DNA from: Aliivibrio sp. EL58
Lineage (GTDB): Bacteria; Pseudomonadota; Gammaproteobacteria; Enterobacterales; Vibrionaceae
Direction of reading: 5' to 3'
Assembly: GCF_900312675.1 (NCBI RefSeq)
Contig: NZ_OMPC01000001.1
Coordinates: forward strand, 789,633 to 853,632
DNA length: 64,000 bases
Positions 11,096-17,275 of this stretch are shown one piece after another. Under the pieces are notes generated by a model. It was given only the letters and a program-made list of their open reading frames with translations, did no database searches and was not told the origin of the DNA. The number at the start of each line of letters is the position of its first letter. Position 1 is the first letter of the stretch. The translations under genes were made by a program, and so were the position numbers.

Positions 11096-11325
11096 CTAGC
11101 GAATAACAATTTTCCTAGGAATTAACTCTATTCCTGCTTGATAACGCTTTGCTGAAGCATTCAACCCTAATGCCAAGGCACTATCAGCAATCAGTTCGAA
11201 TTGCTGTGGTAGAGAGTTTACTTTGATAGGTAAAAAATCAAGCAAACGATTATCACCAAACGTACCTAATTTTATTTTGGTCATCAATTCAGGCTTTTCA
11301 ATTAGTACATCTAATAGAATATAAA
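11096..11325 (-). pseudogene. fruR (cra) 3'-end fragment
   Basis: About 230 bases duplicate the 3' end of the intact fruR at 16298-17275, in the same orientation. The first 165 bases from the stop codon are identical. Three later differences (11261, 11264, 11303) are all silent in the reading frame (GGC/GGT, ACT/ACG, CTC/CTA). Near the broken end, four codons (the EGIL residues) are missing in frame before homology fades. It encodes only the last ~70 residues of the effector domain and has no promoter or HTH, so it cannot act as a repressor. Together with the full copy it forms direct repeats around the peptide-export module. Confidence 0.85.
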
Positions 11326-11367: not shown

Positions 11368-13488
11368 TTATTTTGTAATATCTATTACTCTATCTGCTGA
11401 TTCAATTGTTTCTTTTCGATGAGAAATAATAATTCTTGTTATATCTAATCTACTTATATGTTTATTTATTTTATATTCATTGTCACAGTCTAAATGGCTC
11501 GTTGATTCATCTAAGCAGAGAATGTCTGGTTTTTTATATAAGGCCCTTGCTAAAAAAATACGCTGTAATTGTCCACCAGAAAAATTATTACCCATATCCC
11601 CAACTAAAGAATGAAACCCCATAGGAAGTGATTGAATATCTTCTAAAATATTAGCATGTTTACAACATTGTATTAATCGCTTCTCATCATAACTTGAATC
11701 AAACATGGTAATGTTTTCTGAAAGGGTTCCTGAAAGTAATGTATCATCTTGCATGACACTGCCTAAATGTTTTCGATAGTCATTTAAAGAAATATCTTGA
11801 ATGTTTATATTATCAATATAAATATTTCCTGAAGTAGGTTTTAATAAACCGAGAAGTAACTTCATTAAGGTAGTTTTACCGCAGCCAGAAGAGCCTATGA
11901 TGGCAATACATTCACCAGGTTGAATTTCAAATGTTAGGTTGCTAAATAGCCATTCTGAATTGTCCGTATAACGAAAGCTTAAGTTTTCAACTCGTAGGTG
12001 AGCATTAAGCACGTTAGGAAGTTTATTATGCATTGAATGCTGCTCTCTTTGCTCCAACGTAATGTCTGATAAACGATTCAAATGTAAACTCAATAATTTA
12101 AAAGAGAACATGTTATCAATGAAAGCATATATATTTGTCGTAAACTGGTTTTTGTAAGCAATAAATGCTAATAACATTCCAATTGTAAGGTCTCCTTCTA
12201 TTACGGCTAAGGCACCAAAGAATACAACTAAAATGGTTTCTAAACTGTATATTAAATTATTCAGGCTATCTTCAGCTATCCTTAATTTACCTAAACGAAT
12301 ATCTATATTGATAACCTCAGAATATTGGTTTAACCACGTATTTTGTCTGCTCGTTTCATGATTAAATAATTTAATAGTTTGGATTGCTCTAATACTTTCT
12401 AAAAAGATAGAATCTTCTTTCGCATCTGCCAAAATTGCTTCTTCTGTTATTCGTCTATTAGGGAAATAAAATATAAGCTGTATGAGGAAAGAAACGAGAA
12501 CAACAAAGATCACTAGAAAGGTAAGCTTTTGACTATATAAAAACATCATGAGCAATACGACTGTTGCCATGAGACCGTCAATAATTGATTCAATGACCCC
12601 TGTAGTTAGTAATTCCTTGATAGAGCTCATTGAACTGAAACGAGAAATAACATCTCCAATATGACGTTTCTCAAAGTAATTCATGGGTAATCGGATTAAA
12701 TGATAAAATAAGTTTGATCCCATTTGGATGTTGATGGCACTACTAAATCGAATAATAAGCCAGTTTCGAAAAGCACTTACTACAACTTGAATTAGTGCTA
12801 ATAATCCAAATCCAATAGCTAATACAATTAAGAGAGGTTTATCATTACTCATTAGGACGTTATCTACTACCCATTGTATGTAATAAGGAGAGAATAATGC
12901 TGCTGATTGCATAATAGTAGACAAAAGGAACAAAGAAGTTAGAGATCGTTTTAATCCTGTTATTTTGTCCCAAAGTTGAGATATTTTCATAACAGTTCTT
13001 ACATCTTGTTTTTTAAAAGATGTTGTAGGTGTCAACTCTAAAGCTACACCTGTATAACACCTACTAAATTCAGTAAATGTAAGTTTACGTTTTCCAATCG
13101 ATGGGTCATTAATTAATATCCCTTTTTTTGATACCTCGGTTAACACTACAAAATGGTCTAAATTCCAATGAAGTATACAAGGTAAGGTTAATTGCTTAAT
13201 TTCATGTAATTCACACTGAATTGCACGAGAAGCTAATCCTAATTCACTCGCGATTTCCATAATCTGATTTAGATTCATTCCTTGGGTATCAATTGTTAGG
13301 AACTTTCTAAGAGAAGAAGTATTTATTTGATGACCGTGATATGATGAAACCATAGCTAGAGAAGCTAATCCACATTCCCCCGCTTCAGACTGTACGATTA
13401 AAGGGACTCTTTTTTTTCCTGAATACGATAATAGATCCAGAGGGTTTTGTACTTTTATTTTTTGTTTTAATGTTTGTAACCTTGTCAT
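11368..13488 (-). CDS. Peptidase-containing ABC exporter (C39 family, CvaB-like)
   Basis: 706 residues in the order C39 peptidase (about 28-150), ABC membrane domain (about 170-460) and ATPase (about 490-700). The peptidase triad looks intact: Cys39 in SEAGECG, His112 in LDHFVVL and Asp128 in INDPSIG, with Gln33 for the oxyanion hole. The ATPase has Walker A GSSGCGKT, signature FSGGQLQR and Walker B ILCLDES. Such proteins cut double-glycine leaders and export the mature peptide across the inner membrane, with an HlyD-type adaptor and TolC. The adaptor gene overlaps immediately upstream, and a divergent gene encodes a GG-leader peptide, the likely substrate. Its 3' end lies only about 40 bases from the fruR fragment. 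Confidence 0.93.
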   Translation of the reverse strand: MTRLQTLKQKIKVQNPLDLLSYSGKKRVPLIVQSEAGECGLASLAMVSSYHGHQINTSSLRKFLTIDTQGMNLNQIMEIASELGLASRAIQCELHEIKQLTLPCILHWNLDHFVVLTEVSKKGILINDPSIGKRKLTFTEFSRCYTGVALELTPTTSFKKQDVRTVMKISQLWDKITGLKRSLTSLFLLSTIMQSAALFSPYYIQWVVDNVLMSNDKPLLIVLAIGFGLLALIQVVVSAFRNWLIIRFSSAINIQMGSNLFYHLIRLPMNYFEKRHIGDVISRFSSMSSIKELLTTGVIESIIDGLMATVVLLMMFLYSQKLTFLVIFVVLVSFLIQLIFYFPNRRITEEAILADAKEDSIFLESIRAIQTIKLFNHETSRQNTWLNQYSEVINIDIRLGKLRIAEDSLNNLIYSLETILVVFFGALAVIEGDLTIGMLLAFIAYKNQFTTNIYAFIDNMFSFKLLSLHLNRLSDITLEQREQHSMHNKLPNVLNAHLRVENLSFRYTDNSEWLFSNLTFEIQPGECIAIIGSSGCGKTTLMKLLLGLLKPTSGNIYIDNINIQDISLNDYRKHLGSVMQDDTLLSGTLSENITMFDSSYDEKRLIQCCKHANILEDIQSLPMGFHSLVGDMGNNFSGGQLQRIFLARALYKKPDILCLDESTSHLDCDNEYKINKHISRLDITRIIISHRKETIESADRVIDITK

Positions 13489-14726
13489 TACATTTTCCCT
13501 TTTATTGCATAGATAGGGTCAAGTAACCATTCTAAAAGACTTCTTTTTTCCAAAATAATATCAGCATCGGCAATCATCCCTACTTTTAATGGAAATTTTT
13601 TCCCATAAGCTGAAATTATTTGATTAGTTAACTTAACTCGAACTCGATATATAGCTTCGTCCATTTTTATCGGGAGAATTTTGTCTGTTGGGAGAATTAA
13701 TGCTTTATCTATGTTTATAATAAACCCTTGAGATAAACCAAATTTTTGATAAGGAAAGGCATCAAATCTAATTTTTACTTCATCTCCTATTTGTACAAAT
13801 CCGGCAGAACTTGTGGGGAGTAGCAATTCAACTTCTAAGGGAGACCCCTCAGGTATAATACTTAAAATAGGTGAATCAGCATTAATTTGAGTACCTATTG
13901 AAGGTTGAATCGCAGTAACCATGCCTGATTCTGGCGCTTTTTTAATGAATTCATACGTATTATTGAGCTCGACCAGTTTAACTTGTAATTCAGAAATTTG
14001 TCGTTGAATTACTGCTTTTTTTAAAAGACGCTTTTCTGGCAAAGCTATATGCTCGGATTTCAAATTATCTATATCGACAGATACTGAAGCTATCTCTCTT
14101 TCTAATCTATTAGTGGCCTCTAAGGCTTCTAAATACAATTCTTGAATTGAAGAGAGTAGAGCAGACGAAAGAAATCCCTTTTGGTGCAAGCTTCTATTTT
14201 TATAAAATAGATTCTCCTTGAGTCGAAATCTTTGTTGACTGGTTTCTTTAGCTTTGTTCATTGCTTGTAAGCTCTTTTGTAATTGTACCAATTGTCGCTT
14301 TATACGTTGTTCATCTTTTTTAAATAAAATTTCTGTTACATTTTTCTCTTTTGTAAGAGCTTCAATTTGAATTTTAATTTCTTTACTCAAAGCTTCTGAT
14401 ACTTCCACACCATTCACTAAACTTTGACTATTTCGAATTTTAGCGATTAATTGTCCTTCTTCAACTATGTCTCCTTCATGGACAAATAATTCATCAAGAA
14501 TTCCAGTTCTACCTGAATAGACTTTAATTACTCCTTTTTGAGGTAATAAATAACCTTTAACCGTTTCTTTTCGTGAATATTTAGATTCGATTAAATAAAT
14601 TATTGAAATAACTAAAAATACGAATGTAACGATTGATATAACATAAAAGGAAGGAGGTTGAGTAAGAATCATCTTACCGGTAAGTCGATTTTGTTTAAGA
14701 TTAGTTACTTCTTTTCGGAATAACAT
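13488..14726 (-). CDS. HlyD/CvaA-type periplasmic adaptor of the peptide exporter
   Basis: 412 residues. A short cytoplasmic N-terminus precedes one membrane segment (VISIVTFVFLVISIIYLI), then a biotinyl-lipoyl half (SGRTGILDELFVHEGDIVEEG), a long coiled-coil region (about residues 105-260) and the returning lipoyl/beta-barrel part (ESGMVTAIQPSIG). This is the type I secretion adaptor plan that links an ABC exporter to TolC. I prefer ATG 14726 because AAAGAG lies just before it; a TTG at 14744 could extend it by six residues. It overlaps the exporter gene by one base, so the two form an operon, divergent from the peptide gene. No TolC gene is present here. Confidence 0.9.
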   Translation of the reverse strand: MLFRKEVTNLKQNRLTGKMILTQPPSFYVISIVTFVFLVISIIYLIESKYSRKETVKGYLLPQKGVIKVYSGRTGILDELFVHEGDIVEEGQLIAKIRNSQSLVNGVEVSEALSKEIKIQIEALTKEKNVTEILFKKDEQRIKRQLVQLQKSLQAMNKAKETSQQRFRLKENLFYKNRSLHQKGFLSSALLSSIQELYLEALEATNRLEREIASVSVDIDNLKSEHIALPEKRLLKKAVIQRQISELQVKLVELNNTYEFIKKAPESGMVTAIQPSIGTQINADSPILSIIPEGSPLEVELLLPTSSAGFVQIGDEVKIRFDAFPYQKFGLSQGFIINIDKALILPTDKILPIKMDEAIYRVRVKLTNQIISAYGKKFPLKVGMIADADIILEKRSLLEWLLDPIYAIKGKM

Positions 14727-14849
14727 GTGCTCTTTAATTGTCAATGAAATGTAGTAAATTTACTATGTATTTTTTGTAATTGTGAGTCACTTAATAAGTA
14801 TTTGTTATGTGATTGATGTCATTCATTTATAAAATATATGAAAATAAAC

Positions 14850-14870: not shown

Positions 14871-14945
14871 TGGTATCTTTCGATTTGAAAAATACTTTTG
14901 TTGGTTAATGTTATACCTAAACTCATGTAAAATAAGGATAATATT

Positions 14946-15176
14946 GTGAAAGAAATAACTAGGGAAGATTTAGAACTTGTGATTGGCGGTAGACTAGAGC
15001 ACAGAGCTGGTGGCGGTGGGAATTTAAGCTCTTCTAGAGGAGGAAGTCGATCTCAAGATAGAAGAGAGCGGGGAAGAGATGCTCGAAATAATGGCCATAA
15101 GTCACATGAGGGTGGGAGACGTAAGGGTGGGGATCGCAGTAGAAGAGAAGGTGGCGGTCGTTCAACAGAGCGTTAA
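14946..15176 (+). CDS. Double-glycine-leader secreted peptide with Arg/Gly/Ser-rich mature part
   Basis: 76 residues from a GTG start preceded by AAGGAT at 14934-14939. The first 15 residues, MKEITREDLELVIGG, fit the GG-leader consensus (Ile-12, Thr-11, Asp-8, Leu-7, Val-4, Gly-2, Gly-1). The predicted mature part has 61 residues: 16 Arg, 15 Gly, 8 Ser, 2 Lys, 3 His, 8 acidic residues, no Cys and no aromatic residue, so a net charge near +10 and probably no fixed structure. RGG, GGR and RS-type clusters recur. It faces a C39 exporter and HlyD adaptor, which would cleave after Gly15 and export it. Class II microcins have such leaders but are usually Gly-rich and hydrophobic, so this mature composition is unusual. 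Antibacterial, nucleic-acid-binding or surface roles are all possible. Confidence 0.82.
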   Translation: MKEITREDLELVIGGRLEHRAGGGGNLSSSRGGSRSQDRRERGRDARNNGHKSHEGGRRKGGDRSRREGGGRSTER

Positions 15177-15240
15177 AAATAGTTAATGTGATATTTAAGT
15201 GTGGCTTCATGTGAGTGTAGCCATACAAATGGAGATAGAA

Positions 15241-15864
15241 GTGACAAGTAAATTATTACCTATATTTATTTCTCTGATATTAATAATTTTTAATTATGCC
15301 AAAGCAGAGTCACAACCAGACATTGGGTATTCTTTAGAAATTAATTATCAAACTTATAATGTAATAGGTGAAACTGAAACTGAAATTAATACTTCCTTTA
15401 ATAATAAAATTAAATTTATAGAAAATATAGATATTATATATATTGATGCTTATACACAGTGGAATTATAATATAATTAATGATGACACCACATGTGAAAT
15501 AAACAAGTTTTCTGTGAGTGTTACTTATATATTACCTCAGATTATAATCTCTGATTCAAATAAAGAGGTTGCGAATTTATTTAAATCATATTTAGAGCGT
15601 TTATACCGCCATGAAGAGACACATTGCGCTATATCTGTTAAGTTATTACATGATATTTATATAGCTATTGAGAAGGGACAATCTAGTAATTGTAATGATC
15701 AACGTGAAATTGCTGATAGACTAGAACAAGATATAAGCAAAAACCAAGAAGCATTTGATATGTATACCAATCATGGTGAAATAGAATTAGCTAATTCACC
15801 TTTTGGAGAAGAAAAGTATTTGGCTTACTGTAAGATTTCGTTGCCTGTGTTTAAAAATAATTAA
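15241..15864 (+). CDS. Secreted DUF922-like putative zinc protease of the peptide module
   Basis: 207 residues from GTG 15241, chosen because GGAG at 15231-15234 is ideally spaced and the following residues give a clean signal peptide (cleavage near AKAES). An ATG at 15229 would add four residues but overlaps that binding site. The mature protein has HEETH at residues 124-128 in LYRHEETHC, an HExxH zinc-binding motif, within a region resembling DUF922 proteins, predicted periplasmic metalloproteases. Two Cys near the C-terminal half may pair. It follows the peptide gene by about 64 bases with only a weak hairpin between, so the two are probably co-transcribed. It may process, activate or neutralise the peptide; no experimental role is known to me. 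Confidence 0.72.
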   Translation: MTSKLLPIFISLILIIFNYAKAESQPDIGYSLEINYQTYNVIGETETEINTSFNNKIKFIENIDIIYIDAYTQWNYNIINDDTTCEINKFSVSVTYILPQIIISDSNKEVANLFKSYLERLYRHEETHCAISVKLLHDIYIAIEKGQSSNCNDQREIADRLEQDISKNQEAFDMYTNHGEIELANSPFGEEKYLAYCKISLPVFKNN

Positions 15865-15979: not shown

Positions 15980-16297
15980 GGTTCTGTCGCACGGTAAGGA
16001 ACTAAAGTGACGTTGTAAGTTCAAAATAGTTATATTTAATATCATTTCGAGTCATTAATGGATTTCACTGACTACCAATACCCTTCAGATATCATTCTTC
16101 AAGCGGTACGTTATTACGTCTCATACAAACTCAGCACTCGTGATATCGAAGAGATTTTTACAGAACGTGGTAGCGCTATTGATCATTCTACAATTAACCG
16201 TTGGGTCATTACTTTTTCGCCAATGCTTGAGCACAAATCTCGTCAATTAAAACGTAAAGTATCATCATCGTGGCGTACTCCACCGTGCGACAGAACC
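15980..16297 (+). mobile_element. Internally deleted IS6-family insertion sequence
   Basis: Perfect 16-bp terminal inverted repeats, GGTTCTGTCGCACGGT at 15980-15995 and its complement at 16282-16297, enclose 318 bp. The GGTTCTGT start and transposase HTH fit the IS6/IS26 family, whose full elements are about 0.8 kb. Here the catalytic part is gone. The flanking octamers (CTTTTTTC left, CTAGCGAA right) differ, so there is no target duplication and a rearrangement must have involved one end. The right end abuts the last base of the fruR stop codon. Confidence 0.85.
16058..16297 (+). pseudogene. IS6-family transposase, N-terminal remnant
   Basis: From ATG 16058 the frame encodes about 73 residues with the helix-turn-helix region of IS6 transposases (VRYYVSYKLSTRDIEEIFTERG, then DHSTINRWV). 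It runs straight into the right terminal repeat and then out into fruR sequence, stopping at 16327. The DDE catalytic domain, about 150 residues in intact relatives, is missing, so it cannot transpose itself but could be moved by a related enzyme supplied in trans. Confidence 0.82.
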
Positions 16298-16539
16298 CTA
16301 GCGAATAACAATTTTCCTAGGAATTAACTCTATTCCTGCTTGATAACGCTTTGCTGAAGCATTCAACCCTAATGCCAAGGCACTATCAGCAATCAGTTCG
16401 AATTGCTGTGGTAGAGAGTTTACTTTGATAGGTAAAAAATCAAGCAAACGATTATCACCAAAAGTGCCTAATTTTATTTTGGTCATCAATTCAGGCTTTT
16501 CAATGAGTACATCCAAAATGCCTTCAAGTAGGATATAAG
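16298..16539 (-). repeat. Direct repeat shared with 11096-11325 (3' end of fruR)
   Basis: This part of the intact fruR corresponds to the fragment at 11096-11325. Identity is nearly complete over 215 bases with three silent differences, and then a 12-base gap. Both copies have the same orientation and enclose about 5 kb of the peptide module and IS remnant, so recombination between them would remove that segment and leave one intact fruR with its terminator. Confidence 0.85.
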
Positions 16540-17275
16540 AGGTTGTAATGATCGCATCTGGAATCGTCTCTTCTTTTATCCATTGTTCAAAAATTGCTTT
16601 GCCTGATTCACTGTTAAAGTGTTCGCCATAACCAGTGATACTCGCTAAACCTTTCTCTTTAGCTTTTGCTTTAAAGCCTAAATGACGCTGACGAGATATG
16701 TTGAGATCAGGTAATGCCCCAATTAAGCCGATCGATTTTACGTTTTCATTAACTACCGATTTGGTTAGCTCATAAGCCGCTTCAAAATCTTCACTGATCA
16801 CGCAACCAAAATGTTCATCATCCAAAGAGCGGTCAATCGCGATAATGGGTGTGCCTTTTTCTTGAATCGTTAAATAGTACTCACTGCCATCGGGCAAACA
16901 GCTTGCAACAAACAACGCGTCTATACGACGACTGATTAAAGCATGGGCTACGTTTTTTTCTGTTTCAGGATCATCATCAGAGCAACCAATTAAGATCTGA
17001 TAACCCGCTTTACGAGAGTTGTATTCTAAAAGTTTAGCCAGCTTGGCGTAACTGGTGTTTTCAAGATCAGGAATGATTAAACCAAACGAACGGCTACTGC
17101 CCGCACGTAATGCAGAAGCGGCATGGTCTGGACGATAATTATGCTCATCAACCACAGCCATGACTTTTAATTGGGTCTTTTCACTGATGCGATATTTCTG
17201 TGCTTTACCATTAATGACATAGCTTGCGGTGGTTTTAGAGACGCCAGCAAGTTTGGCAATTTCATCTAATGTCAT
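16298..17275 (-). CDS. fruR: Fructose repressor/catabolite regulator FruR (Cra)
   Basis: 325 residues of the LacI/GalR family. The N-terminal HTH reads LDEIAKLAGVSKTTASYVINGKA, followed by the hinge and a periplasmic-binding-like effector domain (FGLIIPDLENTSYAKLAKLLE). FruR binds operators in the divergent fru promoter and is released by fructose phosphates. It is divergent from fruBKA across a 293-bp region with three matching operators, the usual vibrio/enterobacterial layout. The gene is complete, but the IS remnant abuts its stop codon, so its natural terminator has been displaced to the fragment copy 5 kb away. Confidence 0.95.
   Translation of the reverse strand: MTLDEIAKLAGVSKTTASYVINGKAQKYRISEKTQLKVMAVVDEHNYRPDHAASALRAGSSRSFGLIIPDLENTSYAKLAKLLEYNSRKAGYQILIGCSDDDPETEKNVAHALISRRIDALFVASCLPDGSEYYLTIQEKGTPIIAIDRSLDDEHFGCVISEDFEAAYELTKSVVNENVKSIGLIGALPDLNISRQRHLGFKAKAKEKGLASITGYGEHFNSESGKAIFEQWIKEETIPDAIITTSYILLEGILDVLIEKPELMTKIKLGTFGDNRLLDFLPIKVNSLPQQFELIADSALALGLNASAKRYQAGIELIPRKIVIR

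What the first reader, a model, noticed from the sequence alone, without database searches (positions are those of the whole stretch)
14946..15176. GG-leader peptide with an Arg/Gly-rich, cysteine-free mature part
The leader fits the double-glycine consensus and a C39 exporter with intact Cys/His/Asp is encoded next door, so secretion is well supported. The 61-residue mature part (16 Arg, 15 Gly, 8 Ser, no Cys, no aromatics, net charge about +10) does not look like known class II microcins, which are mostly hydrophobic. It resembles disordered RGG-type nucleic-acid-binding tails. It could be a new kind of bacteriocin, a DNA/RNA- or polyanion-binding secreted peptide, or a biofilm or host-interaction factor.
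Basis: partly seen in the sequence, partly recalled or inferred. Interest (0 to 1): 0.8.

Follow-up and report, generated by a model that had tools for sequence, protein, structure and literature searches.

The report
Secreted arginine-glycine peptide with protease partner
An Aliivibrio genome carries a small mobile gene set for exporting an unusual arginine- and glycine-rich peptide, probably a weapon against rival bacteria, next to a protease that probably protects the producer; related but highly varied sets occur elsewhere in the Vibrio family.

Summary
In detail: 14946-15176 encodes MKEITREDLELVIGG plus a 61-residue mature part (16 Arg, 15 Gly, 8 Ser, no Cys, no aromatics, net +10) beside a C39 exporter and HlyD adaptor. 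It is not a chance frame: another Vibrionaceae genome (G020) has the same four genes in the same order, with a homologous peptide (mature parts 8.4 SD above shuffles in the coding frame) and a homologous downstream gene. That gene, not mentioned in the finding, is a DUF922 zincin-type metalloprotease with a signal-peptide-like start. The exporter belongs to a Vibrionaceae clade whose double-glycine cargo is mostly strongly cationic and hydrophilic, unlike that of sister exporters. In all nine clade cassettes without a glycosyltransferase, the next gene downstream is protease-like (DUF922, Rce1/CPBP or S26; one weak ClpP-like). In G096, a DUF922 and an Rce1-like gene of the G020 locus remain while peptides and exporter are absent, the pattern of orphan immunity genes. 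Best reading: a mobile, microcin-like module exporting a disordered Arg/Gly peptide, with DUF922 as periplasmic immunity protease. Export, killing and immunity are inferred, not shown. Novelty: a new variant of double-glycine bacteriocin systems.

The parts
14946..14990 (+). Double-glycine leader MKEITREDLELVIGG (GTG start), predicted C39 cleavage after Gly15
   Evidence: fits the leader pattern. All 19 clade ORFs fit it by construction; 17 of them are R/K-rich in the mature part, 2 are hydrophobic
14991..15176 (+). 61-aa mature Arg/Gly/Ser-rich part and stop; C-terminal GGRSTER fits a tail GGRx[TI]E[RHN] shared by four peptides
14934..14938 (+). Shine-Dalgarno-like AAGGA
   Evidence: Read
15241..15864 (+). 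DUF922 (PF06037) zincin-type metalloprotease with HExxH (HEETH) and a signal-peptide-like N-terminus; likely GTG start at 15241 (longest ORF starts at 15199)
   Evidence: Pfam E 1.3e-19; HExxH in 21 of 21 aligned sequences, window included; start and signal peptide judged by eye
13488..14744 (-). HlyD-family periplasmic adaptor (divergent from the peptide)
   Evidence: Pfam HlyD_3 and HlyD_D23
11368..13488 (-). C39 peptidase-containing ABC exporter
15980..16297 (.). IS6-family remnant with both terminal inverted repeats (15980-15992, 16285-16297)
16058..16327 (+). Truncated IS6 transposase reading frame
   Evidence: 86% identity over 73 aa to the annotated IS6 transposase AWOD_p920_67
11096..11314 (.). 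Left copy of a 219-bp direct repeat of the 3' end of a lacI-type gene
   Evidence: 98% identical to 16298-16516; one copy in 12 of 13 other genus genomes in the stretches fetched, G002 has one full and three partial copies
16298..16516 (.). Right copy of the 219-bp repeat, 3' end of the intact lacI-type gene 16298-17275 (-)

Best explanation
This is a horizontally acquired, microcin-like secretion module. The C39 domain of the ABC exporter removes the 15-residue leader while the peptide passes through the ABC-HlyD channel, presumably with a TolC-type outer-membrane protein. What leaves the cell is a 61-residue, probably unmodified, disordered, strongly cationic Arg/Gly peptide that inhibits competing bacteria, probably by binding an anionic target after crossing or disturbing their outer membrane. 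The DUF922 zincin, sent to the producer's periplasm, destroys or neutralises peptide that comes back and so gives immunity. Shown here: the genes, homology, gene order, exporter clade, charge shift of its cargo, protease neighbours and the insertion. Inferred: cleavage, export, killing, target and immunity.
For: (1) Double-glycine leader beside an exporter with C39 motifs. (2) The same four genes in the same order in G020, with a homologous peptide and another DUF922. (3) The window's exporter falls in a group of 17 (support 0.98), all from Vibrionaceae; with one leader filter the cargo near clade exporters has R+K median 0.24 against 0.06 and net charge +7 against -1 for outgroups, p<1e-5. 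(4) In 9 of 9 clade cassettes without a glycosyltransferase the next gene downstream is protease-like: DUF922 2, Rce1-like 4, S26 2, weak ClpP-like 1. (5) G096 keeps DUF922 (87% nt identity) and the short Rce1-like gene (74%) of the G020 locus, has another full-length Rce1-like gene, and 95 bp that in G020 lie at and upstream of the HlyD start, but no exporter and no R/K-rich double-glycine ORF in the fetched stretch. (6) 16 of the 18 DUF922 loci found in 296 Vibrionaceae genomes stand without such a peptide, five of them among integron-type repeats. (7) The module lies between 219-bp repeats of a lacI-type 3' end; no exporter of this kind is at that site in 13 of 13 other genus genomes. (8) Tested precedent for a HlyD-C39-peptide-immunity locus: mcbABCI of Moraxella catarrhalis (abstract).
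Against: No killing, secretion or immunity data. The window and G020 DUF922s are not sisters in the tree, so joint descent with the peptide is not shown. Because 16 of 18 DUF922 loci lack such a peptide, DUF922 may have a general role. The short Rce1-like gene (163 aa in G020, 168 aa in G096) lacks the EExxxR motif, so for that one proteolysis is unlikely, whatever its role. The AlphaFold model of DUF922 was poor (mean pLDDT 41). Only one homologue with the same partner is known. The G096 pattern could also arise by gain in G020. One outgroup peptide (L117, Gly/Lys) is as cationic as clade cargo, and two filter hits in the clade (L089) are hydrophobic.
Confidence: 0.5

Rival explanations
1. 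Maturation: DUF922 and the analogous Rce1-like, S26 or ClpP-like partners trim or activate the exported peptide instead of giving immunity.
For: Protease families of several types sit next to the peptide gene. A CAAX protease, SilX, is needed for bacteriocin activity and is not immunity in Streptococcus anginosus (abstract). The shared tail GGRx[TI]E[RHN] could be a recognition site.
Against: Protease-like genes are present where peptide and exporter are absent (G096) and DUF922 occurs alone in integron-type arrays; a dedicated maturase has no use there. The short Rce1-like gene lacks EExxxR.
Confidence: 0.2
2. Not a bacteriocin: the peptide is a secreted polyanion-binding factor acting on eDNA, capsule, biofilm or host surfaces.
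For: Composition: 26% Arg, 25% Gly, GRAVY -2.19, so disordered by composition; no disorder predictor was run.
Against: Patchy distribution (the four-peptide profile finds no Vibrionaceae genome of 296 beyond those it was built from), variable cargo, protease partners with an orphan pattern.
Confidence: 0.2
3. DUF922 is an unrelated neighbour and the peptide's true immunity gene, if any, lies elsewhere.
For: The two paired DUF922s are not sisters; the window one groups with solitary homologues (support 0.99).
Against: Homologous peptides are followed by DUF922 in two different genomic settings; DUF922 of this kind is rare (17 of 296 family genomes).
Confidence: 0.15
4. Signalling peptide: the product is a cell-cell signal like competence pheromones exported by C39 transporters.
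For: C39 exporters also export signals in Gram-positives (recalled; ComA paper seen only as listing and abstract start).
Against: No sensor kinase or response regulator seen among the ORFs of the module (read by eye); sequence very variable.
Confidence: 0.05
5. Chance reading frame.
For: Low-complexity purine-rich DNA (68% purine).
Against: Homologue in G020 with similarity strongest in the coding frame and the same gene order.
Confidence: 0.02

Closest known systems
Class II microcins of Enterobacterales (surveyed in PMC9746304, passages read)
   Same: Double-glycine leader, C39 ABC exporter, HlyD adaptor, a small neighbour as candidate immunity gene
   Different: Mature part Arg/Gly-rich and very hydrophilic (GRAVY -2.19); no described family matched; partner is a zincin, not a small membrane protein.
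mcbABCI of Moraxella catarrhalis (PMC2761928, abstract read)
   Same: Two secretion genes, a double-glycine peptide and an immunity gene directly downstream
   Different: All four transcriptionally linked there; here the peptide pair diverges from the exporter pair, and the downstream gene is a DUF922 protease, whereas McbI had no database similarity
Aliivibrio wodanis pAWOD920 bacteriocin locus p920_61-66 (PMC4462113, passages read)
   Same: Aliivibrio, C39/HlyD, double-glycine peptide, IS6 transposase nearby, CAAX/Abi gene reported; locus up-regulated 1.4-2.1 fold in co-infection and proposed as likely cause of growth inhibition
   Different: Its peptide p920_63 is Gly/Ser-rich with net charge -1 and has MceI/MceJ-like genes. 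The exporter nearest to ours on that plasmid is another set, p920_36-37
Abi/CAAX-protease bacteriocin immunity (Kjos 2010, not held; known from citation in PMC4462113)
   Same: Membrane protease beside a double-glycine peptide; full-length Rce1-like partners in relatives keep EExxxR
   Different: The window's own partner is DUF922, a different protease class
Orphan immunity arrays of V. cholerae T6SS (PMC5361080, abstract and start of introduction read)
   Same: Immunity genes kept after loss of the effector, as proposed for G096
   Different: Injected T6SS effectors, not secreted peptides

Membership tests
Double-glycine (C39-processed) secreted peptides | Leader with -12/-7/-4 hydrophobic positions and GG | tested here: met
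   pattern (positions recalled)
Double-glycine (C39-processed) secreted peptides | C39 ABC exporter with catalytic motifs and HlyD adaptor nearby | tested here: met
Double-glycine (C39-processed) secreted peptides | Cleavage after GG and secretion | not testable with these tools
   Needs mass spectrometry
Class II microcins | Sequence similarity to a verified microcin | tested here: inconclusive
   No Pfam or NCBIfam family for the peptide; direct comparison with the verified microcins was not made
Class II microcins | Antibacterial activity and cognate immunity | not testable with these tools
   No assay
DUF922 (PF06037) zincin-type proteases | Pfam score above cut-off | tested here: met
   71.3 bits against 27
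DUF922 (PF06037) zincin-type proteases | HExxH motif | tested here: met
   HEETH; 21 of 21 aligned sequences. Zincin fold predicted for the family in PMC3650047 (passages)
DUF922 (PF06037) zincin-type proteases | Zincin fold of this protein | tested here: inconclusive
   AlphaFold with 2 sequences, pLDDT 41; no fold search was run
Glycocins / glycosylated bacteriocins | Glycosyltransferase in the cluster | tested here: not met
   None seen between 11.3 and 16.3 kb; present in several relatives
RGG/RG nucleic-acid-binding proteins | Nucleic-acid binding | not testable with these tools
   Composition only

The most novel reading that the evidence does not exclude
A Vibrionaceae superfamily of disordered, Arg-rich exported antibacterial peptides whose producers protect themselves by proteolysis. 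Interchangeable envelope-side proteases of at least three catalytic types (DUF922 zincin, S26 serine, Rce1/CPBP) are paired with swapping peptide cassettes behind a common exporter, and a sister branch carries Cys-containing peptides with GT2 or TcdA/TcdB-domain glycosyltransferases, possibly a Gram-negative glycocin-like class.
Probability: 0.4. Interest if true: 0.85.

Novelty: new variant of a known kind. Interest (0 to 1): 0.68.

Why it matters
If true, small double-glycine toxins of Gram-negatives are not limited to hydrophobic membrane-active peptides, and immunity can consist of a periplasmic protease, for which a disordered Arg/Gly peptide is an easy substrate. It would give DUF922 a testable function, explain why DUF922 travels in integron-type arrays, and supply peptide-protease pairs from several protease families. 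Surveys that start from known microcin sequences may miss such cargo.

Tried and rejected
Searching the peptide directly: genome contigs, plasmids and viral contigs with the four-peptide alignment gave nothing; relatives came from whole-genome search and through the HlyD and DUF922 neighbours. DUF922 on plasmids: none at E<=1e-5. HlyD in viral contigs: none. The V. harveyi peptide on plasmids finds only itself, the L083 peptide nothing. DUF922 in solved structures by sequence: best E 0.67. The ClpP-like assignment of the L085 partner is weak (NCBIfam E 0.0059, 16.6 bits against a cut-off of 120; no Pfam; nothing convincing in PDB). Promoter scan: 9 sites against 8.2 +/- 2.8 expected, uninformative; no terminator.

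Considered and rejected: a simple DNA repeat (codon diversity); DUF922 and peptide as a pair inherited together in window and G020 (not supported by the tree). A first comparison with hand-picked cargo (20 clade and 18 outgroup peptides) was repeated with one filter to limit selection bias: 19 ORFs from 14 of 19 clade loci and 24 ORFs from 16 of 24 outgroup loci. That filter returned two hydrophobic ORFs in L089, missed the peptides of L083, L093 and L103 listed by hand, and found none in L082 and L090, where I found none by hand either. The script cut one outgroup leader (L114) at the wrong place. L104 (near copy of L103), L102 (same plasmid as L086), L097 (same flank as L096) and L107 (broken exporter) were left out of these counts. 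L083, L098, L099 and L112 fell out of the exporter tree (no intact match to both proteins), and L097, L102 and L107 were not entered. The cassettes of L083, L084, L089 and L099 are homologous and not independent. In the Cys/glycosyltransferase table L103 was left unclassified; later showed a glycosyltransferase upstream of its Cys-containing peptide, which would only strengthen the association.

Full report
The reading frame and its composition are as described. 14946-15176 starts with GTG behind AAGGA and encodes 76 residues; after the 15-residue double-glycine leader come 61 residues with 16 Arg, 15 Gly, 8 Ser, net charge +10, no Cys and no aromatic residue. Arg is written with six codons and Gly with four. 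To the left, on the opposite strand, lie a HlyD-type adaptor and an ABC exporter with a C39 peptidase domain with its Cys and His motifs. To the right, 64 bases after the peptide's stop if the GTG at 15241 is the start, lies a gene that the finding does not mention: a DUF922 protein (Pfam E 1.3e-19) with HEETH and, by eye, a signal peptide. DUF922 has been predicted to be a zincin-type metalloprotease family (PMC3650047, passages).

The peptide is real by comparison. One of the 60 other genomes first searched, G020, has a match, and its locus shows the same four genes in the same order and orientation. Its peptide MKELNLNEMNNVAGG... is again Arg/Gly-rich, ends in GGRHTER (window GGRSTER), and is followed by DUF922. 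The mature parts align with score 122 against 55.9 +/- 7.9 for composition-preserving shuffles, 0 of 2000; the similarity is strongest in the coding frame (z 8.4 against at most 3.9 elsewhere). A V. harveyi plasmid and genome G228 carry peptides with the related tails GGRAIEH and GGRLIEN. Those two are similar to each other (0 of 2000 shuffles); window against harveyi is weaker (fraction 0.0095), window against G228 not significant (0.07), G020 against harveyi not at all (0.60), G020 against G228 borderline (0.02). A profile of the four matches 3 of 296 Vibrionaceae genomes at E<=0.01, and these three supplied rows of the profile, so no new genome was found.

The exporter explains the wider picture. 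HlyD searches found matches at E<=1e-60 in 28 of 296 Vibrionaceae genomes and 10 of 369 of the class, the window's own included in both. A FastTree of joined C39 and HlyD proteins of 40 loci, rooted at the midpoint, puts the window in a group of 17 with support 0.98. Double-glycine cargo near these exporters is mostly cationic and hydrophilic: with one leader filter, R+K median 0.24 against 0.06, net charge +7 against -1, GRAVY -1.53 against -0.25, for 19 ORFs from 14 of 19 clade loci and 24 ORFs from 16 of 24 outgroup loci (p from 2.8e-6 to 2.6e-7; loci are related, so p values are indicative). Against the trend, two of the 19 clade ORFs are hydrophobic and one outgroup peptide (L117, Gly/Lys) has net +7; several outgroup peptides are acidic, not hydrophobic. 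Three peptides listed by hand were missed by the filter, and none was found in L082 and L090. The window's exporter pairs with L085 (support 0.66; 0.81 with L087), G020's with L090, L086 and L082, although window and G020 peptides are homologous; with these modest supports this suggests that peptide cassettes are exchanged between exporters.

Partners follow two patterns. In the nine cassettes without a glycosyltransferase the next gene downstream is protease-like: DUF922 (window, G020), S26 signal-peptidase type (V. harveyi plasmid, G228, both with SMxP and KR motifs), Rce1/CPBP (L083, L084, L089, L099, all with EExxxR), and in L085 a protein with only a weak ClpP-type match. V. lentus plasmid p1, with a broken exporter, adds another Rce1 case. 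In the other group glycosyltransferases of family 2 or with a TcdA/TcdB-type domain stand next to Cys-containing peptides; Cys is present in 10 of 10 there against 2 of 9 in the first group (Fisher p 0.0007; not independent). The window peptide has neither Cys nor a glycosyltransferase neighbour, so it is probably unmodified.

Immunity or maturation. G020 and G096 share flanks around this locus. G096 keeps DUF922 (87% nucleotide identity) and the short Rce1-like gene (74%), has another, full-length Rce1-like gene after DUF922, and retains 95 bp that in G020 lie at and upstream of the HlyD start, but has no exporter there and no R/K-rich double-glycine ORF in the 16.5 kb fetched. Loss of toxin and exporter with retention of protection is the simple reading; gain in G020 is not excluded, and the short Rce1-like gene lacks EExxxR, so it cannot be counted as an active protease. 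DUF922 stands without such a peptide at 16 of the 18 Vibrionaceae loci (one borderline, chance-looking ORF in L022), at five of them among integron-type repeats (L023, L024, L025, L033, L035; the type is judged from the repeat sequences by recall). Orphan immunity arrays are known from V. cholerae T6SS loci (PMC5361080, abstract). Against: the two paired DUF922s are not sisters, and SilX shows that a bacteriocin-linked CAAX protease can serve production rather than immunity (PMC9298176, abstract).

Mobility. The module sits between two 219-bp copies (98%) of the 3' end of a lacI-type gene. In the other 13 genus genomes the lacI-type gene is present. Stretches reaching 2.6 to 11 kb beyond its end show no such exporter at the site (only two weak generic ABC-ATPase matches) and one copy of the 219-bp segment in 12 of 13; G002 has one full and three partial copies of 94-115 bp, all beginning at the same base. 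The window's left-flank genes lie within about 0.1 kb of the segment in G008 and G009, the empty site, and about 7 kb away in G005, which therefore has another insert; in the remaining 10 the left flank is not found beyond short pieces in the stretch read. So the 3' end of this gene looks like a repeated insertion site. At the right end of the module is an IS6 remnant with both inverted repeats, abutting the second copy; its frame is 86% identical over 73 residues to an IS6 transposase on pAWOD920 of Aliivibrio wodanis. That plasmid's length equals that of contig C3 of G002 (91,951 bases), so G002 is taken to be A. wodanis and the window's genus Aliivibrio.

Relation to known systems. The arrangement works like microcin and mcbABCI loci (PMC2761928, abstract), but no described family matched the peptide. 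Hjerde et al. (PMC4462113, passages) describe a bacteriocin locus on pAWOD920 whose peptide is Gly/Ser-rich, not Arg-rich; [quoted passage not shown] In the held open-access library, searches listed no title or abstract start that describes Arg/Gly-rich double-glycine peptides of Vibrionaceae (80 and 81 listed 12 of 55 and 12 of 25 papers); most subscription papers are not held.

Verdict. Observation confirmed; interpretation partly supported; most likely a mobile microcin-like module with a proteolytic immunity partner. Export is likely; activity and immunity are inferred.

Noticed in passing
L086:11150-13623, L087:9022-11296, L088, L089, L091, L092, L094, L098, L103: Cys-containing, Arg/Lys-rich double-glycine peptides next to stand-alone glycosyltransferases (GT2 or TcdA/TcdB-type domain) and in several loci a ~165-aa protein with signal-like start and no Pfam match, or an M12-like protein; a possible Gram-negative glycocin-like class.
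   Followed up: partly
L100:892-1368, L101:4774-5031, L120:4396-4653, L121:4452-4769, L122:6056-6295: Sister exporters have acidic double-glycine peptides with one or more copies of a K[ASH]PSDDDEG unit, possibly multi-core precursors.
   Followed up: no
L117:1665-2015: A Gly/Lys repeat peptide (GGKGGGGKGG...) behind a double-glycine leader near a more distant exporter.
   Followed up: no
L023, L024, L025, L033, L035: DUF922 genes lie among integron-type repeats; genome G035 holds two copies.
   Followed up: partly
L147:7399-9791: G096 carries a short Rce1-like gene, DUF922 and a full-length Rce1-like gene side by side without peptide or exporter.
   Followed up: yes
L141:2111-7958 and L102:9001-14957: pAWOD920 of A. 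wodanis carries two separate C39/HlyD exporter sets; the passages I read of PMC4462113 describe one.
   Followed up: partly
L088:8710-9375, L103:8313-8888: Two clade peptides continue into a similar further domain of about 100 residues (RVICT.FY.KGML...VWRADL).
   Followed up: no
L149 (G002), window 11096-11314 and 16298-16516: The 3' end of a lacI-type gene is duplicated in the window (219 bp) and three more times in part in G002 (94-115 bp), all copies starting at the same base; G005 has a different insert of about 7 kb there. It looks like an insertion hot spot.
   Followed up: partly
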